Positions 4,461 to 16,860 of a stretch of DNA of 46,988 nucleotides are shown in pieces. The translations under genes and the position numbers were made by a program. The notes beneath the pieces were generated by a model. It was not told the origin of the DNA. It did no database searches and worked only from the letters and a program-made list of their open reading frames with translations. The stretch spans positions 1 through 46,988 of the forward strand of contig JAMOUT010000048.1 in assembly GCA_027061995.1 (NCBI GenBank), read 5' to 3'. Positions within the stretch are counted from its first letter, which is position 1, and every line of letters starts with the position of its first letter. The stretch comes from Candidatus Aminicenantota bacterium. Its GTDB lineage: Bacteria; Acidobacteriota; Aminicenantia; JAMOAD01.

Positions 4461-6074
<1,614 letters not shown>

Positions 6075-6265: not shown

Positions 6266-6514
6266 ATGGGTGAAAAAGTTAGTGTGATTAGCGTCGGATT
6301 TAATAATTTTGTTGCAAGAGATAAGATAATAGCCATTACAGCTGTTAATACCAATCCTATTAAAAGAGCGATTAGGATAGCTCAAGAGGAAAATAGACTG
6401 ATAGATGCCACAATGGGTAAAAAAGTTAAAGCAGCTATATTTATTAATAGCAATCAATTGGTTTTATCCGCTTTAACACCTCAAACATTATATCTGAGAC
6501 TTACAGAGGAATGA
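6266..6514 (+). CDS. DUF370 / RemA-like small regulatory protein
   Basis: The protein has 82 residues. Conserved DUF370 features are the VGFNNFVARDKIIAI start, the central PIKRAIRIAQEENRLIDATMGKK block and LVLSALTPQTLYLR at the end. In Bacillus subtilis RemA is a DNA-binding activator of matrix genes; in distant lineages the role is unknown. I chose the ATG at 6266 because AGGAGG is correctly spaced there. An in-frame ATG at 6236 lies over the -10 box. It overlaps gmk by 4 nt (ATGA), a widespread remA-gmk linkage. Confidence 0.85.
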   Translation: MGEKVSVISVGFNNFVARDKIIAITAVNTNPIKRAIRIAQEENRLIDATMGKKVKAAIFINSNQLVLSALTPQTLYLRLTEE

Positions 6515-7110
6515 GTTCACCTCTCCTTTTTGTAATAACCGGAGTTTCAGGGGGAGGAAAATCAACTCTTATCTCTCATATTATAAAAAAATACGGTTTT
6601 TCTTTTTCCATCTCTCATACAACAAGAAAACCTCGTGAGGGGGAAATAGACGGAAAAGACTATCATTTCATAGATGAAAATAAATTTAAAGAGATGATTG
6701 AAAAAGAGCATTTTATAGAGTGGGCGAAGGTTTACGGAAATCTATACGGAACTTCAAAAGGGGAGATTAAAAAACTTTTCGATAAAGGTAAAAATATAAT
6801 TCTTGATCTTGATATTCAAGGAGCAAATAATATAAAAAAGATTTATCCAGATTCGATAGCCATTTTCATATTAACCAAGAATATATCTGTTTTAAAAGAG
6901 AGACTCTTAAAAAGAGGGGAAAAGGATTTAGAAACAAGAATCATGAAAATCAAACAAACACTTAAAGAGATTGATAATTATGATTATCTGTTGATAAATG
7001 ATGAGATTAAAACTTCTTACATAAAGATTGACTCCATAGTGGAAGCTGAGAGCATGAAAATAAAAAATCTTGATTTAAACAAGATAATAGATTCTTTTTG
7101 GGAAAAATGA
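6511..7110 (+). CDS. gmk: Guanylate kinase
   Basis: This 199-residue enzyme phosphorylates GMP to GDP with ATP. The P-loop GVSGGGKS is at residues 11-18, followed by the GMP-binding SHTTRKPREGEIDGKDYHF and the IILDLDIQGA strand. The start overlaps the remA-like stop and the stop overlaps the coaBC start, both as ATGA. rpoZ, commonly found between gmk and coaBC, is absent. Confidence 0.95.
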   Translation: MSSPLLFVITGVSGGGKSTLISHIIKKYGFSFSISHTTRKPREGEIDGKDYHFIDENKFKEMIEKEHFIEWAKVYGNLYGTSKGEIKKLFDKGKNIILDLDIQGANNIKKIYPDSIAIFILTKNISVLKERLLKRGEKDLETRIMKIKQTLKEIDNYDYLLINDEIKTSYIKIDSIVEAESMKIKNLDLNKIIDSFWEK

Positions 7111-8300
7111 AAAAGATAATTCTCGGAGTAACGGGCTCCATTGCATCATATAAAGCGGTTGAAATAGTTCGTTTGCTTAAAAAAAGAGGATATTCCGTAA
7201 GTGTTGTTATGACCCCCGATTCCGTAAACTTCATATCACCTCTCATATTTGAAATTATCTCGGAAAATAAAGTTATAATCGATCAATTTAAAGATTCGGA
7301 TAATTATAAAGTTGAACATGTTAAAATGGCAAGAGAAACCGAACTTTTTGTTATTGCTCCCGCAAGCCTGAATACAATCGGAAAATTTACCTCGGGAATC
7401 GCTGATAATTTTTTAACACTTCTTTTCTTTGCTTACACGGGGAAAGTCCTTATAGCTCCCGCGATGAACACCGCAATGTATCTTCACCCTGTTAATAAAA
7501 AAAACATTGAATATTTAAAATCAATAGGTGTGGATTTCATATCTCCGTCGGAAGGTTCCCTTGCATGCGGAGAAGAGGGGGTGGGAAGACTTGCCGAACC
7601 TGAAGATATAGTTGATATTATTGAAAGCTATCTCGAAAAAAAACTTTATAAAGGAAAGAGGATACTTGTTTCCGGCGGAGGAACAAGGGAGAAGATAGAT
7701 GATTTTCGGTTCATTACTAATCCCTCGTCGGGTAAAACAGGAGTTGAATTTGCAAGAATAGCGAGAAATTTCGGAGCTGAAACAACTCTGGTATCAGGGA
7801 AAAACAATCTGAAAATTCCGCAAGGAATCAATTATATTGAGATCGAAAGCGGGAAAGAGATGTATGAAGAGTTAAATAAAAAAATCAAAGAGGCGGATAT
7901 TCTTATTATGTCAGCCGCAGTATCTGATTTTAAACCCTCCGATTATAAAAAAGGAAAAATCAAGAAAACAGATTTTTCTCTTAATCTGAAACTTGATAAA
8001 AATCCCGATATTTTAAAAGAGCTTTCCTTAAAGAAAAAAGGAAACCAGATTTTCGTGGGATTTTCAGCTGAATATGGTTTGGAAAAAAAAGAAGCGGAAA
8101 AAAAGCTTAAAGAGAAAAACCTTGATATAATAATACTAAATTCCATTAAAGAAAAAAATCTCGGATTCGGTTCAGAGGATAATCGCACTATCCTAATATT
8201 TAAAGACGGAGATATTATTGATACGGGAGTTATTTCAAAAAGGGAGCTTGCCAAATTGGTTTTGGAAAAAATATATGATAAATGGATAAGAAAAACATAG
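7107..8300 (+). CDS. coaBC: Bifunctional phosphopantothenoylcysteine decarboxylase/synthetase
   Basis: This 397-residue fusion makes 4'-phosphopantetheine for coenzyme A. The N-terminal flavoprotein CoaC half has catalytic H71, the PAMN motif (N121) and C154 in LACGEEG. The C-terminal CoaB half has NPSSGKTG and the dimer lysine region (KKTDFSLNLKLDKNPDIL). The start is the ATG at 7107 in the ATGA overlap with gmk. A TTG 9 nt upstream is in frame but unnecessary. It overlaps the glycosylase gene by 19 nt. Confidence 0.96.
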   Translation: MKKIILGVTGSIASYKAVEIVRLLKKRGYSVSVVMTPDSVNFISPLIFEIISENKVIIDQFKDSDNYKVEHVKMARETELFVIAPASLNTIGKFTSGIADNFLTLLFFAYTGKVLIAPAMNTAMYLHPVNKKNIEYLKSIGVDFISPSEGSLACGEEGVGRLAEPEDIVDIIESYLEKKLYKGKRILVSGGGTREKIDDFRFITNPSSGKTGVEFARIARNFGAETTLVSGKNNLKIPQGINYIEIESGKEMYEELNKKIKEADILIMSAAVSDFKPSDYKKGKIKKTDFSLNLKLDKNPDILKELSLKKKGNQIFVGFSAEYGLEKKEAEKKLKEKNLDIIILNSIKEKNLGFGSEDNRTILIFKDGDIIDTGVISKRELAKLVLEKIYDKWIRKT

Positions 8301-9022
8301 AGAAAATCTTGTATTTAAAAGAGTTAGGGGTGGAATACCTTTCAAAGGATATTATATATATATATTCTGATAATAAAATCAATAAAAAAGAGAAAAAACA
8401 AAAATTTAGTCAAAATAAAACAATAAACAATAATCCCATTATTAAAAAAGGGAAGAGAAAAGAGGAATTTCTTGAAGAGATAAAAAAAGAGGTTTTTTCC
8501 TGTAAAAAATGTCCTCTTTTTGAAACAAAGAAAAATTATGTTTTCGGGGAGGGGAGCATTAATGCTAACATAATGTTTGTCGGGGAGGCTCCCGGAGCTG
8601 ATGAAGATATTCAGGGAAGACCTTTTGTTGGAAAAGCGGGGAAAAAATTAACAGAGATGATTCATGCCATGGGTTATAAAAGGGAAGAGATTTATATAGC
8701 AAACATTGTAAAGTGCAGACCCCCTGGAAACGCAACCCCTACCCCCGAGATCAGGAAAACCTGTTTTCCTTTTCTCCAAAAACAGATAGCAATTATTAAA
8801 CCCAAAGTTATTATTACAATGGGTAATGTTGCAACCCAAACACTACTGAACACTAAACAGACTATTACAAAAATAAGGGGGAATTTCGGTTTTTATCAAA
8901 ATATTCCTGTGATGCCCACTTATCACCCTTCGTATATAATCAGAAATTATACTATAAATATCAGAAAGCAATCTTGGAGTGATCTTCAAAAAGTGATGAA
9001 ATATATAGATGAAAGCAATTAG
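8282..9022 (+). CDS. Family 4 uracil-DNA glycosylase (iron-sulfur)
   Basis: This 246-residue enzyme removes uracil from DNA. Cysteines C74, C77, C145 and C161 match the [4Fe-4S] ligands of type 4/5 glycosylases. GEAPGADED (101-109) is the active-site loop and HPSYI (215-219) the second motif. About 65 N-terminal residues form a lysine- and asparagine-rich extension not needed for the fold, possibly a DNA- or partner-binding tail. It overlaps coaBC by 19 nt and priA by 14 nt, so translation is likely coupled. Confidence 0.9.
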   Translation: MDKKNIEKILYLKELGVEYLSKDIIYIYSDNKINKKEKKQKFSQNKTINNNPIIKKGKRKEEFLEEIKKEVFSCKKCPLFETKKNYVFGEGSINANIMFVGEAPGADEDIQGRPFVGKAGKKLTEMIHAMGYKREEIYIANIVKCRPPGNATPTPEIRKTCFPFLQKQIAIIKPKVIITMGNVATQTLLNTKQTITKIRGNFGFYQNIPVMPTYHPSYIIRNYTINIRKQSWSDLQKVMKYIDESN

Positions 9023-10850
9023 TGTAGCGGTAAATATAAATACTTATAAGCAATTTTCCTACTATTACGAAGGGAAAGATGATATCTTATTCAAAAGGGT
9101 AAAAATTCCTTTCGGAAAATATCCTCAAACAGGCGTTGTAACAAATTATTTGGAGAACTATAAAGAGGGAAGATTTAAAACAAAAAAAATAATGGAGGTT
9201 TTGGACAAAAAAAGATTTATTGATAAAAAACATTTTAATTATCTTGATTTTATCAATAAAAAACTTTTACTCCCGCAGGGAAAAACCTTTAATCTTGCTT
9301 ACCCTCCGTTTTATGATTATGAAGGGGAAATCAGTTCTTTAAAGAAAGAGGATAAAAACAAAAAATCTGAAAAGGATATTTTAACTCTTGATATAGGATT
9401 TTCTTTTGAAACGGTTTTAAAAAGTATTAAAGAGGATATTAAATCGGGAAAAAAAATAAAGCTGGTTTTTCCCGATTATTTTCTTTTAAAACAATTTTCC
9501 GCTTTTATGAAGAATATTAACGGATTTTTTTATTCTGAAATTGCTAAAGGTGGCAAACGAAAACAATTTTGGGAAAAATATTTAAAAGGAGATTTTAATG
9601 TAATCTCCGGTATCCTATATCCCCTTTTTATCCCTGATTTTGACAAAACAATCTATTATATTATAGATGAAGCTCCTTTAAAATTTAATCTTTTACACCC
9701 GTTTCCCGTTAATCTTACAGATATCGCTTTTCTAAATTATCATAAGAAAAAAAATCTGAGATTTTTTTCCCTTGCCCCTTCAATAAAAACTTACAAATTT
9801 GTAAAAGACAACAATGGAATTATAAAAAAAGAGAAGGTAAGAAAAAAAAATATCTATTTTGCTAAGCATAAAAACAGAGTTTTACCCAAAGAGATTAAAG
9901 AGGAGATAAAAGATCATCTTCAGGATAAAAAGATTCTCCTTATTGTTAATAGAACAGGGGTTAAAAATTATCTGTATTGCCCCCGTTGCAAAACCATCGC
10001 CCTATGCCCGAAAGACAAAACACCTTTGAGTTTTGATGAAAAATCGGATATTGTCTTTTGTCCCGCATGTAAAAAAAAGTTTAAATCTCCGATGAAATGT
10101 GAAATATGCGGACATAATTATATTATTATAAAAAAAAGGGGGACAAACACTATTAAAAATTCTCTTGAGAAATATCTTTTCGAATCGGAAACATCAGATA
10201 AAGAGGATAAGGGGAAATTGATAGAAGTTTATTCAAGAGGGGTTGTCGGTAAAACAAAGGAGGAGGAGAAAATATTTAAAAGATTTAAAAAAGGAGATAC
10301 TTCCGTTCTTATAGGGACCAATCTTGCAATTAAACCTTTTGAATTTCAAAACCTTACTCTTATAATATATTTTTATCCCGAGCTTGATTTGTCCAATATA
10401 AATCCTGAAAACTCGGAAAAAATTTTTTATAATCTTGAATCATTGAACAGAATGATTGGTGAAAACGGAAAGATTATAATAAAATCGGATTACCCCGATT
10501 TTTATGTTATCGATGAGTTTAAGAATCATGATTATGAACATTTTTTTAAAACAGAGCTTGAGATCAGGGAAAAATTGGAATACTTCCCGATCCGAGAATT
10601 TATAAAGATTGAAGTTAGAGCTGTTAAAAAACAAAGCGGTCTTAAAAAGATAAAAAAATACAGAAAACTATTGGAAGATAGTAAGGGAAAAATAGAGATA
10701 TTCGGACCTTTTCATTCCAAAAAAAAGGATTATTCCTCTTTTTACCTTATTTTAAAAGCAAAAGATATGGATAATTTATTGGATGTCATCGGTAATAAAA
10801 TATTACCGGAATCGGATAATTCCACACTCTTTCACATTAACAGATTATGA
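9009..10850 (+). CDS. priA: PriA-like primosomal protein with degenerate helicase motifs
   Basis: PriA normally recognises stalled forks and unwinds the lagging arm. This 613-residue homologue keeps the N-terminal 3'-DNA-binding domain, the zinc domain and the C-terminal domain. The ATPase motifs have decayed. The Walker A region (124-140) reads DIGFSFET without GKT. DEEH is IIDEAP at 218-223. SATPS is SLAPS (254-258). GTQM-x-KGHDF is GTNLAIKPFEF. The QxxGRAGR arginine-finger motif is unrecognisable. Seven zinc cysteines remain (C324, C327, C333, C351, C354, C364, C367); the eighth is D336. The frame is intact, so this looks like a maintained pseudohelicase, as described for Deinococcus PriA. 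Its place after coaBC is conserved. Confidence 0.8.
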   Translation: MKAISVAVNINTYKQFSYYYEGKDDILFKRVKIPFGKYPQTGVVTNYLENYKEGRFKTKKIMEVLDKKRFIDKKHFNYLDFINKKLLLPQGKTFNLAYPPFYDYEGEISSLKKEDKNKKSEKDILTLDIGFSFETVLKSIKEDIKSGKKIKLVFPDYFLLKQFSAFMKNINGFFYSEIAKGGKRKQFWEKYLKGDFNVISGILYPLFIPDFDKTIYYIIDEAPLKFNLLHPFPVNLTDIAFLNYHKKKNLRFFSLAPSIKTYKFVKDNNGIIKKEKVRKKNIYFAKHKNRVLPKEIKEEIKDHLQDKKILLIVNRTGVKNYLYCPRCKTIALCPKDKTPLSFDEKSDIVFCPACKKKFKSPMKCEICGHNYIIIKKRGTNTIKNSLEKYLFESETSDKEDKGKLIEVYSRGVVGKTKEEEKIFKRFKKGDTSVLIGTNLAIKPFEFQNLTLIIYFYPELDLSNINPENSEKIFYNLESLNRMIGENGKIIIKSDYPDFYVIDEFKNHDYEHFFKTELEIREKLEYFPIREFIKIEVRAVKKQSGLKKIKKYRKLLEDSKGKIEIFGPFHSKKKDYSSFYLILKAKDMDNLLDVIGNKILPESDNSTLFHINRL

Positions 10851-14189: not shown

Positions 14190-14967
14190 AATTTTCGGAA
14201 TTACAATTTATACTTATGGCTTTATGTTTGCTCTCGGTCTCGGATTAGCGATTTATCTGTCTATTCTAACGGCAAAAAAGGAAAATATTGATCCCGATAA
14301 ATTATCGGATATGATTTTTTGGACTGTTATAATAGGGATAATAGGGGCAAAGCTTCTGCTTGTAATAACAAATCCGGAAATGCTGAAATCAAGCCAAGCA
14401 TTTATGGATATTTTAAGATCGGGTGGAACTTTTTACGGAGGTATAGTATTCGGTCTTCCTTTTGCGGTATGGTATGCTCACAGAAAAAAACTTCCTTTAT
14501 TAAAAATATCCGATATAATCGCCCCTTATATTGCTCTCGGGCATTCCCTCGGAAGATTGGGATGTTTTTCCGCAGGTTGCTGCTACGGGAGAGCCACCAA
14601 CTCTTTTCTCGGAGTGATGTTTAAAAATCCCATAGCACATGAAAATACCGGGGTTCCGCTATATACAAAGATATACCCCACGCAATTGATGGAATCCATC
14701 TTAAATTTCCTGAATTTCATAGTTCTTTTTATTTTTTACAGAAAGAAAAAATACGATGGAACGGTTTTAATACTCTATGTGATGAATTATGCGGTTATCA
14801 GATTTTTCATGGAATTTTTCAGAGGAGATGTTGACAGAGGATATGTTTTCGGAGGGCTGTCTCATCCTTGGACATCTTTATCCATTCCTCAGTTTATATC
14901 TTTAATAGGGTTTTTCGGTGGCCTTTTCTTGTGGTTGAGGATAAAGAAGAAAAACAGCAAATCATAA
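14170..14967 (+). CDS. lgt: Prolipoprotein diacylglyceryl transferase
   Basis: This 265-residue multi-pass enzyme attaches diacylglycerol to the lipobox cysteine before LspA acts. The family signature appears as HSLGRLGCFSAGCCYGR, with the usual N-terminal half HPI...YGFMFALG and the downstream YPTQLMES and RFFMEFFRGD blocks. A strong Shine-Dalgarno (AAGGAGG) lies inside the end of lspA. The stop codon overlaps that of the converging moeA paralogue by 6 nt. Confidence 0.95.
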   Translation: MHPILIKIFGITIYTYGFMFALGLGLAIYLSILTAKKENIDPDKLSDMIFWTVIIGIIGAKLLLVITNPEMLKSSQAFMDILRSGGTFYGGIVFGLPFAVWYAHRKKLPLLKISDIIAPYIALGHSLGRLGCFSAGCCYGRATNSFLGVMFKNPIAHENTGVPLYTKIYPTQLMESILNFLNFIVLFIFYRKKKYDGTVLILYVMNYAVIRFFMEFFRGDVDRGYVFGGLSHPWTSLSIPQFISLIGFFGGLFLWLRIKKKNSKS

Positions 14968-16860
14968 AAGTATCTTATATCCCCCAAATTTCTCAGCTCT
15001 TTGTTTTAATTCTTTGGATTTTAATATCTTTAACAATAAAGAATAATTATCTGTTTCCGAAAAATCCTTTAAAAACAGAAGTTCATATTTTTCATCGGCA
15101 ATCGGAATAAAATCAAGCCCGAGAATTTTGGCAACCGCCATAATCCCTATCCCGCAATCAGCTTCCCCTCTCTTAACAATTATACCTGTTTCAAGATGGG
15201 TAAAAACCTCCCTGTCATACCCTTTTATATCATCGGGTTTAATCTTTTTTTGTTTTAAAAGATAATCAAACAATATTCTTGTTCCCGAACCTCTCTGTCT
15301 GTTTATAAAAGAGAGTCTTTTTTGTTTAAGATCCTCTATTTTACTTATCCTTTTCTCCCCTTTTTTCACTAAAAACCCTTGTTGTCTCATAAGAAAAGGT
15401 AATCTTACATATCTATCTTTTTCTAAATATTTTTCAATAAAGGAGGTGTTGTATTCCCCCGTTTTTTCATCCAAAAGGTGGATTCCGGAAAAATGGGTTA
15501 TTCTGTTTTTTATGGCAGTCAGTCCCCCGAAAGAACCGACATTAATTATTGAAATATCTTTTATCCAATCCCTCTTTTTCATGATATCTCTTATCTCCGA
15601 GATTAAAAAATCATTTGAGCCGACAAAAATTATTTGATTGTCTATATTTTCTTTTTTAATAAGAAGGGTGATATCTTTTTTCTCCCCCTTGTTTATCCCC
15701 TCTACATCCTCTTCTATCTCCAAAATTCCGTTTTTTTCGATGAAAGGGGTTAATACCGACGAACCTCGTTTGAGAGGATAAAAATAATAATCATTTGATA
15801 TTTTCCCTGTTTTTATTTTTATAAATTCTCTCATCCCGAGCTTGGAGAATATTTTAAAAGCCGAAATTGCTTTGATTTTTTCATTGGAAAAATTGTATAA
15901 AGTAAAAAAAGATGATATCTCTTTGATAAATTCATTTAAAACGCCTGCGGCAGCTCCGGGATATCCGGGTAAACAAAAAACAGGTTTTTCCGCTATTTCT
16001 CCGAAACAAAAAGGTTTTCCCGGGATATAATTAACTCCGTGGAAATATATTTTACCTTTTTTTTCTATGAGAGAGGGGATAAAATCTTTTGACCCCGAAG
16101 ATGTTCCCGCTGAAAAGAAAATAGCATCATATTTTTCGATATTATCATCCACCTCTTTTTCTATATCATTTACAATATCCTTTATAATCGGAGATACATC
16201 AACTTCAAACCCCCATTCTTCAAGATAACTCTTTATAAAAAGTGTGTTTGTTTCATAAATTTTATTATCTGTTAAAGGGTTATCCCGTTCAACTATCTCA
16301 TCTCCGGTAGGGATAATTAACACCTTCGTTTTTTTTAAAACTTTTATTTTGTTTACTCCCGCTGCAAATAATAAAGCCATTGTTTCAGGCAAAATTTTAG
16401 TGTAAGAGGGTATTATCATCTCCCCTTCGGATATATCTTCCCCTATACTCCTCATATTCCCGTAAAAAGGGATAGGGGCAAAAATTTCCACCTCTTTTTC
16501 CGATATTTTTCTGATATTTTCTATCATTATAACAGCATTGAATTTTTCAGGAATAGGATAACCTGTATTTACAAAAACAAAATCTTCCTCGATTTTAAGT
16601 TTAACCGGTTTATTGGGAGTTGCAAAACCGGTATCTTCGTATCGAACGGCTATTCCATCCATTGCCGAAGTTGTATAAGGGGGAACGGATTTCAGGCTAT
16701 AAACAGGCTCCGCAGTGATCCTGCCGAGCGATTTTTCAGTTTCTATTATCTCTTGTTCAAGCTTTTTCAGAGGGGACAGTTCTTTTAATTTTTTTTTAAG
16801 TATCTCTTTGGCTTTAAAAAAATCTGTTTTGCTGAAATAGATTTTTCTGTTAAAATTCAT
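14962..16860 (-). CDS. MoeA-like molybdenum insertase with C-terminal periplasmic-binding-like domain
   Basis: Of 632 residues, about the first 410 form a MoeA unit: VPPYTTSAMDGIAV near the N-terminus, the PTGDEI motif and the FFSAGTSSG and PGKPFCFG blocks. The last 220 residues resemble the type 2 periplasmic-binding fold found with MoeA or ModE (PBP-like), including the RQRGSGTR motif and the GEADCGIGI block. The domain probably senses a cytoplasmic ligand such as an oxyanion or pterin. It overlaps the upstream moeA by 11 nt and so lies second in the operon. No other molybdenum cofactor genes are nearby. Confidence 0.85.
   Translation of the reverse strand: MNFNRKIYFSKTDFFKAKEILKKKLKELSPLKKLEQEIIETEKSLGRITAEPVYSLKSVPPYTTSAMDGIAVRYEDTGFATPNKPVKLKIEEDFVFVNTGYPIPEKFNAVIMIENIRKISEKEVEIFAPIPFYGNMRSIGEDISEGEMIIPSYTKILPETMALLFAAGVNKIKVLKKTKVLIIPTGDEIVERDNPLTDNKIYETNTLFIKSYLEEWGFEVDVSPIIKDIVNDIEKEVDDNIEKYDAIFFSAGTSSGSKDFIPSLIEKKGKIYFHGVNYIPGKPFCFGEIAEKPVFCLPGYPGAAAGVLNEFIKEISSFFTLYNFSNEKIKAISAFKIFSKLGMREFIKIKTGKISNDYYFYPLKRGSSVLTPFIEKNGILEIEEDVEGINKGEKKDITLLIKKENIDNQIIFVGSNDFLISEIRDIMKKRDWIKDISIINVGSFGGLTAIKNRITHFSGIHLLDEKTGEYNTSFIEKYLEKDRYVRLPFLMRQQGFLVKKGEKRISKIEDLKQKRLSFINRQRGSGTRILFDYLLKQKKIKPDDIKGYDREVFTHLETGIIVKRGEADCGIGIMAVAKILGLDFIPIADEKYELLFLKDFSETDNYSLLLKILKSKELKQRAEKFGGYKILL

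What the first reader, a model, noticed from the sequence alone, without database searches (positions are those of the whole stretch)
9009..10850. PriA homologue that has lost its helicase active site
Walker A, DEEH, SATPS and the QxxGRAGR motif are all degenerate while the frame is intact. The DNA-binding and zinc regions are kept, with seven of eight zinc cysteines (the fourth is D336). Deinococcus radiodurans PriA is a reported pseudohelicase, but the trait is rare. It implies replication restart by structural recognition only, or with another helicase doing the unwinding.
Basis: partly seen in the sequence, partly recalled or inferred. Interest (0 to 1): 0.6.

Follow-up and report, generated by a model that had tools for sequence, protein, structure and literature searches.

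The report
ATPase-dead PriA, widespread across Aminicenantia
The only copy of PriA (the protein that restarts interrupted DNA copying) in this uncultured Aminicenantes bacterium has lost the parts that burn ATP and unwind DNA, and nearly the whole bacterial class shares the loss, so PriA probably works there as a docking platform rather than a motor.

Summary
Confirmed and extended. ORF 9009-10850 (+, 613 aa) is an intact single-copy PriA with no Walker A, no DEEH histidine, no SATPS and no QxxGRAGR arginines. Seven of eight zinc cysteines remain; the fourth is D336, conserved in all four sequenced members of its family. The gene is under purifying selection (dN/dS about 0.15-0.2) and ends a conserved gmk-coaBC-udg-priA run. 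No second PriA exists in the assembly: other hits are Mfd, RecG and UvrB. The loss is not local. All 59 genomes examined from 11 of 12 families of the class (named relatives: "Candidatus Aminicenantes") lack the ATPase motifs. One family (f4, 7/7 genomes) has an intact PriA, but at a non-syntenic locus. The 30 other Acidobacteriota PriAs examined (the best-scoring ones) are intact. One Aquificota and one Patescibacteria PriA also lack the motifs, so "rare" is too strong. Best reading: a pseudohelicase, as shown for Deinococcus radiodurans PriA, that recognises forks and SSB and recruits DnaB without unwinding. ATPase loss is near certain; the scaffold role is inferred. New variant of a known kind.

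The parts
9009..10850 (+). priA pseudohelicase, 613 aa, single copy
   Evidence: no second PriA
9009..9308 (+). 3' DNA-binding domain (aa 1-100)
   Evidence: Pfam PF17764 at aa 5-99, E 2.1e-12
9309..9386 (+). short linker (aa 101-126) where other PriAs carry a winged-helix domain of about 95 aa: deleted here
   Evidence: alignment with outgroup and class PriAs
9387..9410 (+). degenerate motif I (Walker A) position, aa 127-134 LDIGFSFE; lysine absent
9663..9680 (+). motif II position, aa 219-224 IDEAPL: D220-E221 kept, H lost
9768..9782 (+). motif III position, aa 254-258 SLAPS in place of SATPS
9978..10109 (+). zinc-binding cysteine-rich region (C324, C327, C333, D336, C351, C354, C364, C367)
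10314..10337 (+). motif V position, aa 436-443 GTNLAIKP; G-T kept
10440..10457 (+). motif VI position, aa 478-483 SLNRMI in place of QxxGRAGR
10509..10847 (+). C-terminal domain (aa 501-613); E516, R520 and P527 invariant in a 13-sequence class alignment
8282..9022 (+). uracil-DNA glycosylase, overlaps the priA start by 14 bp
   Evidence: Pfam PF03167; overlap read from the sequence
7098..8300 (+). coaBC, part of the conserved gmk-coaBC-udg-priA run
6511..7110 (+). gmk, first gene of the conserved run

Best explanation
This is the orthologous, functioning PriA of the organism, which has become a pseudohelicase: a structure-specific fork- and SSB-binding scaffold with no ATPase. It recognises a stalled fork or D-loop through the 3'BD, the C-terminal domain and the collapsed helicase lobes, docks on the SSB tail, and brings in the DnaB helicase, through a loader where one is present. 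Clearing of the nascent lagging strand is left to another enzyme (RecG is present) or is not needed. Shown: loss of motifs I, III and VI and of the winged helix; single copy; purifying selection; conserved gene order; class-wide distribution; SSB tail ending in LPF. Inferred: absence of ATPase in vitro, the scaffold function, and the identity of any helping helicase. Evolution (inferred): the pseudohelicase sits at the ancestral coaBC-udg-priA position; the one family with an intact PriA (f4) carries it elsewhere, having lost udg-priA from its gmk-coaBC locus, so f4 most likely replaced the dead copy rather than kept the ancestral one.
For: Motif table over about 50 PriAs: every non-f4 class member lacks the motif I and VI residues, f4 and outgroup keep them. 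Tally: 59 genomes without, 7 f4 genomes with. dN/dS 0.15-0.2 within the family and 0.15-0.26 in other pseudohelicase pairs, against 0.11-0.12 for f4. Other PriA-like hits in the genome are Mfd, RecG and UvrB. Synteny gmk-coaBC-udg-priA in f1, f2, f3, f5, f6, f7, f8 and f12; coaBC-udg beside priA in outgroup G220; absent around f4 priA, whose gmk-coaBC locus lacks udg and priA. Top PDB fold hits are PriA. SSB tail GSDEGLPF and DnaB present. Precedent: D. radiodurans PriA has no ATPase or unwinding but binds forks and DnaB (PMC4504706); ATPase-deficient E. coli PriA still assembles primosomes (PMC4504706).
Against: No biochemistry. The AlphaFold model is weak (mean pLDDT 57.6; the first 131 residues below 50), so a rebuilt non-canonical nucleotide site cannot be excluded, and D220-E221 of motif II is retained. 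The DnaC/DnaI-like loader of relatives was not found in this assembly, nor was DciA, so the hand-off partner is unidentified here. RpoB+RpoC and PriA trees disagree on how many losses there were.
Confidence: 0.8

Rival explanations
1. The PriA is a relic: replication restart has moved to another protein and the gene is drifting, not yet lost.
For: Several catalytic motifs and one whole domain are gone; dN/dS of pseudohelicase pairs (0.15-0.26) is somewhat above that of intact f4 PriAs (0.11-0.12).
Against: Open frame in the genomes examined, dN/dS far below 1, even conservation of 3'BD, zinc region and CTD, retention in essentially every class genome searched.
Confidence: 0.06
2. A divergent but working ATPase: a rearranged P-loop replaces Walker A and the protein still unwinds DNA.
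For: D-E of motif II and G-T of motif V are kept in the family.
Against: No [AG]x4GK[ST] in the protein, no arginine finger at motif VI, and in family f5 motif II is lost as well. Replacing the P-loop lysine alone abolishes activity in E. coli PriA (K230R; PMC4504706).
Confidence: 0.05
3. An intact second PriA lies in the missing 5% of this metagenome-assembled genome.
For: Assembly of 104 contigs, 95% complete.
Against: Three other same-family genomes at 97-99% completeness also have one, motif-less copy, and the class survey shows essentially one full-length PriA per genome.
Confidence: 0.03
4. Evolution: two or three independent losses of the helicase motifs in the class, with f4 keeping the ancestral active PriA that merely moved.
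For: RpoB and RpoB+RpoC trees place f4 with f1 and f5 and reject one clade of all non-f4 members (p-AU 0.003 and 0.0012).
Against: PriA tree without motif columns puts all pseudohelicases in one 100/100 clade; most non-f4 families share the same one-residue shortening of motif I; dead copies sit at the ancestral locus while f4's does not. Non-helicase domains alone cannot decide.
Confidence: 0.3

Closest known systems
Deinococcus radiodurans PriA (pseudohelicase, PMC4504706)
   Same: PriA orthologue with ruined helicase motifs I and II and DNA binding kept; shown experimentally to lack ATPase and unwinding but to bind forks and DnaB.
   Different: There the P-loop lysine is replaced by arginine; here the P-loop is shortened and the lysine absent, motifs III and VI are gone too, and the winged-helix domain is deleted. 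Different phylum, so the loss is independent.
E. coli PriA K230R (priA300) and the winged-helix-deleted E. coli PriA (PDB 6dcr)
   Same: Laboratory versions of the same two lesions: ATPase-dead PriA and PriA without the winged helix. 6dcr is the second-best fold match of the model.
   Different: Engineered one at a time; here both occur together in nature. I did not read a functional study of the 6dcr construct.
Actinobacterial PriA (NCBIfam PRK14873)
   Same: From memory, UniProt cautions that these PriAs have no detectable helicase domains.
   Different: Not tested here; the window protein matches PRK14873 models far less well (E 1.5e-8 at best) than PRK05580 models.
Intact PriA of family f4 in the same class (e.g. 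L014, L015)
   Same: Same class; 705-706 aa PriA with 3'BD, winged helix, lobes and zinc region.
   Different: All ATPase motifs intact and gene at a non-syntenic locus.

Membership tests
PriA (primosomal protein N') | Profile match along the protein | tested here: met
   NF004066 E 3.6e-43, TIGR00595 E 1.2e-39 over aa 134-594, but below the curated cut-offs
PriA (primosomal protein N') | N-terminal 3' DNA-binding domain | tested here: met
   PF17764 over aa 5-99, full profile, E 2.1e-12
PriA (primosomal protein N') | Winged-helix domain | tested here: not met
   About 95 aa between 3'BD and lobe 1 missing; also missing in families f5 and f6. Treated as a derived loss, since orthology rests on gene position, profile and fold
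PriA (primosomal protein N') | Eight zinc cysteines in lobe 2 | tested here: not met
   Seven cysteines plus D336, same in all four family members
PriA (primosomal protein N') | PriA fold | tested here: met
   Nine best Foldseek PDB hits are PriA, best E 1.7e-24, on a low-confidence model
PriA (primosomal protein N') | Orthologous gene position in the lineage | tested here: met
   gmk-coaBC-udg-priA in eight families; coaBC-udg beside priA in outgroup G220
Active SF2 DNA helicase | Walker A GxxGxGK[ST] at motif I | tested here: not met
   No [AG]x4GK[ST] anywhere; DIGFSFET at the position
Active SF2 DNA helicase | QxxGRxGR at motif VI | tested here: not met
   SLNRMI at the position
PriA pseudohelicase (D. 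radiodurans type) | No ATPase or unwinding in vitro, fork and DnaB binding kept | not testable with these tools
   Needs purified protein
PriA pseudohelicase (D. radiodurans type) | Gene kept under purifying selection as the only priA | tested here: met
   dN/dS 0.15-0.2 in the family; one PriA in the genome

The most novel reading that the evidence does not exclude
PriA lost its motor early in the class Aminicenantia and has served as a motor-less scaffold across nearly the whole class since; in family f4 the dead copy was deleted and replaced by a motor-bearing PriA at a new locus: a natural loss-and-restoration experiment on what the PriA helicase is for.
Probability: 0.5. Interest if true: 0.55.

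Novelty: new variant of a known kind. Interest (0 to 1): 0.45.

Why it matters
PriA is usually described as a helicase, and whether its motor matters for restart is still disputed (a 2023 review says so for B. subtilis, PMC10804225). A class-wide, long-standing loss under purifying selection suggests that the recognition and recruitment functions are the indispensable ones. The winged-helix-less, motor-less 613-residue version is a small natural scaffold for biochemistry, and the f4 family offers a matched comparison with an apparently active PriA.

Tried and rejected
Second PriA in the genome: other hits identified as Mfd, RecG and UvrB. NCBIfam PriA cut-off as a proxy for activity: rejected, since many motif-less class members score well above the TIGR00595 cut-off. 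A loose Walker A pattern matched four non-f4 proteins; for two of them (L056, L148) the aligned motif I position shows the matches lie elsewhere, while L061 and L064 were checked only by the stricter GxxGxGK pattern, which they lack. The first RpoB tree used wrong-strand frames for three genomes and was redone. A 13-sequence alignment was too diverse for the genome-contig scan. A second structure job with four sequences was worse (mean pLDDT 46). The tree of non-helicase domains gave no decision on the number of losses. No paper was found joining PriA and Aminicenantes, and the actinobacterial case was not documented in the passages read.

Full report
Observation. The window (contig C48 of a 2.36 Mb, 104-contig, 95% complete genome) holds one uninterrupted 613-aa frame at 9009-10850 +. 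Profiles identify it as PriA along its length: NF004066 E 3.6e-43, TIGR00595 E 1.2e-39, 3'BD PF17764 E 2.1e-12; the best sequence hits in the PDB are PriA chains. The ATPase motifs are gone. There is no [AG]x4GK[ST] anywhere; motif I reads DIGFSFET, one residue short and without lysine; motif II IIDEAP keeps D220-E221 but not the histidine; SATPS is SLAPS; QxxGRAGR is SLNRMI. Zinc cysteines 324, 327, 333, 351, 354, 364 and 367 are present and 336 is D, conserved as D in all four family members.

Structure. An AlphaFold model from the six sequences that could be used is of low overall confidence (mean pLDDT 57.6; residues 1-131 below 50) but better over the lobes, zinc region and CTD. Its nine best PDB matches are all PriA (E 1.7e-24 to 7e-16), among them the winged-helix-deleted E. 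coli PriA 6dcr. The model is too weak to rule out an unusual nucleotide site.

Is the gene alive? The frame is open in the relatives examined. Nei-Gojobori dN/dS is 0.15 for the closest family pair and 0.16-0.20 for more distant, partly saturated pairs; other pseudohelicase pairs give 0.15-0.26, intact f4 pairs 0.11-0.12. Within the family, 3'BD, zinc region, lobe 2 and CTD are about equally conserved (54-60% identity). priA overlaps udg by 14 bp and follows gmk-coaBC-udg. The SSB of this genome ends GSDEGLPF, keeping the PF tip to which PriA is known to bind (established knowledge; PDB 4nl8 is PriA bound to the SSB tail peptide). DnaB is present. The other PriA-like hits in the genome are Mfd, RecG and UvrB, so there is no second PriA in the assembly.

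How far does the loss reach? Same-family records are titled Candidatus Aminicenantes. In the class (142 species searched) I read PriA from 59 genomes in families f1, f2, f3 and f5-f12 and 7 in f4 (counted as distinct proteins). None of the 59 has the motif I or motif VI residues under strict patterns; all 7 f4 proteins have GITGSGKT or GVTGSGKS and QMxGRAGR, and the f4 proteins aligned also keep DEEH and ATPS. A loose P-loop pattern hits four non-f4 proteins; in the two of these that I aligned the hit lies outside the motif I position. The 30 Acidobacteriota outgroup PriAs fetched are intact, but they are the best-scoring of 349 non-class genomes searched, so a few degenerate ones could have been missed. 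A PriA from an Aquificota record (L099) and one from a Patescibacteria record (L100) also lack motifs I and VI. Deinococcus-Thermus is the published case (PMC4504706); Actinomycetota is a further one from memory, untested here.

When was it lost? A PriA tree without motif columns unites all pseudohelicases (100/100) with f4 as sister. RpoB and RpoB+RpoC trees instead place f4 with f1 and f5 and reject a single non-f4 clade (p-AU 0.003, 0.0012). The PriA tree may be pulled by shared relaxation of the lobes, and the non-helicase domains alone do not decide. Gene order helps: gmk-coaBC-udg-priA is conserved in eight pseudohelicase families, and coaBC-udg lies beside the intact priA of outgroup G220, so the dead copies sit at what looks like the ancestral locus. 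In f4, priA lies elsewhere with differing neighbours, and gmk-coaBC has no udg or priA after it. The simplest account is one early loss, then replacement of the dead copy in f4. Two or three losses plus relocation in f4 remains possible (about 0.3). No cross-phylum PriA tree could be built here to find a donor.

How it most likely works. As a scaffold: fork and 3'-end recognition by 3'BD and CTD, docking on SSB, recruitment of DnaB. Two published facts make this plausible: ATPase-deficient E. coli PriA still assembles primosomes, and D. radiodurans PriA binds forks and DnaB without ATPase or unwinding (both PMC4504706). In E. coli, RecG is proposed to direct correct PriA binding, and PriA helicase can be harmful when RecG and RuvAB are absent (PMC4752480); RecG is present here, so a motor-less PriA guided by RecG is a reasonable but untested picture. 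Relatives carry a DnaC/DnaI-like AAA+ protein of about 254 aa with an N-terminal Cys motif, near sigma-factor and MoxR-like genes; it was not found in this assembly, and DciA was not found in any of the 26 class genomes searched.

Verdict. Observation confirmed; interpretation right in kind, too narrow in extent. New variant of a known kind: a motor-less PriA also lacking the winged helix, in a class where motor-less PriA is the rule. Interest 0.45.

Noticed in passing
G000 whole genome; L153-L157: A DnaC/DnaI-like AAA+ helicase loader (about 254 aa, Cys-rich N-terminus, near sigma-factor and MoxR-like genes) is found across the class but not in this assembly; DciA was not detected in any of 26 class genomes searched.
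   Followed up: partly
L099:2380-4437 (Aquificota record) and L100:1815-3725 (Patescibacteria record): Both PriAs lack Walker A and QxxGRAGR, suggesting further independent losses in other phyla.
   Followed up: partly
L209-L215 and L189-L191 (family f4): In f4 the gmk-coaBC locus has lost udg and priA, and an intact priA lies elsewhere, with different neighbours in the two f4 loci compared.
   Followed up: partly
L149 and other family f5 genomes: Family f5 has the most degraded PriAs (motif II also lost) and includes genomes of 7-10 Mb, very large next to the 2-3 Mb usual in the class.
   Followed up: no
14962-16860 -: A 632-aa ORF that looks like a MoeA-type protein fused to a C-terminal substrate-binding-like domain (read by eye from the translation, no profile run).
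   Followed up: no
4461-6074 +: GroEL whose C-terminus ends PPMDMY rather than the usual Gly-Met-rich tail (read by eye).
   Followed up: no
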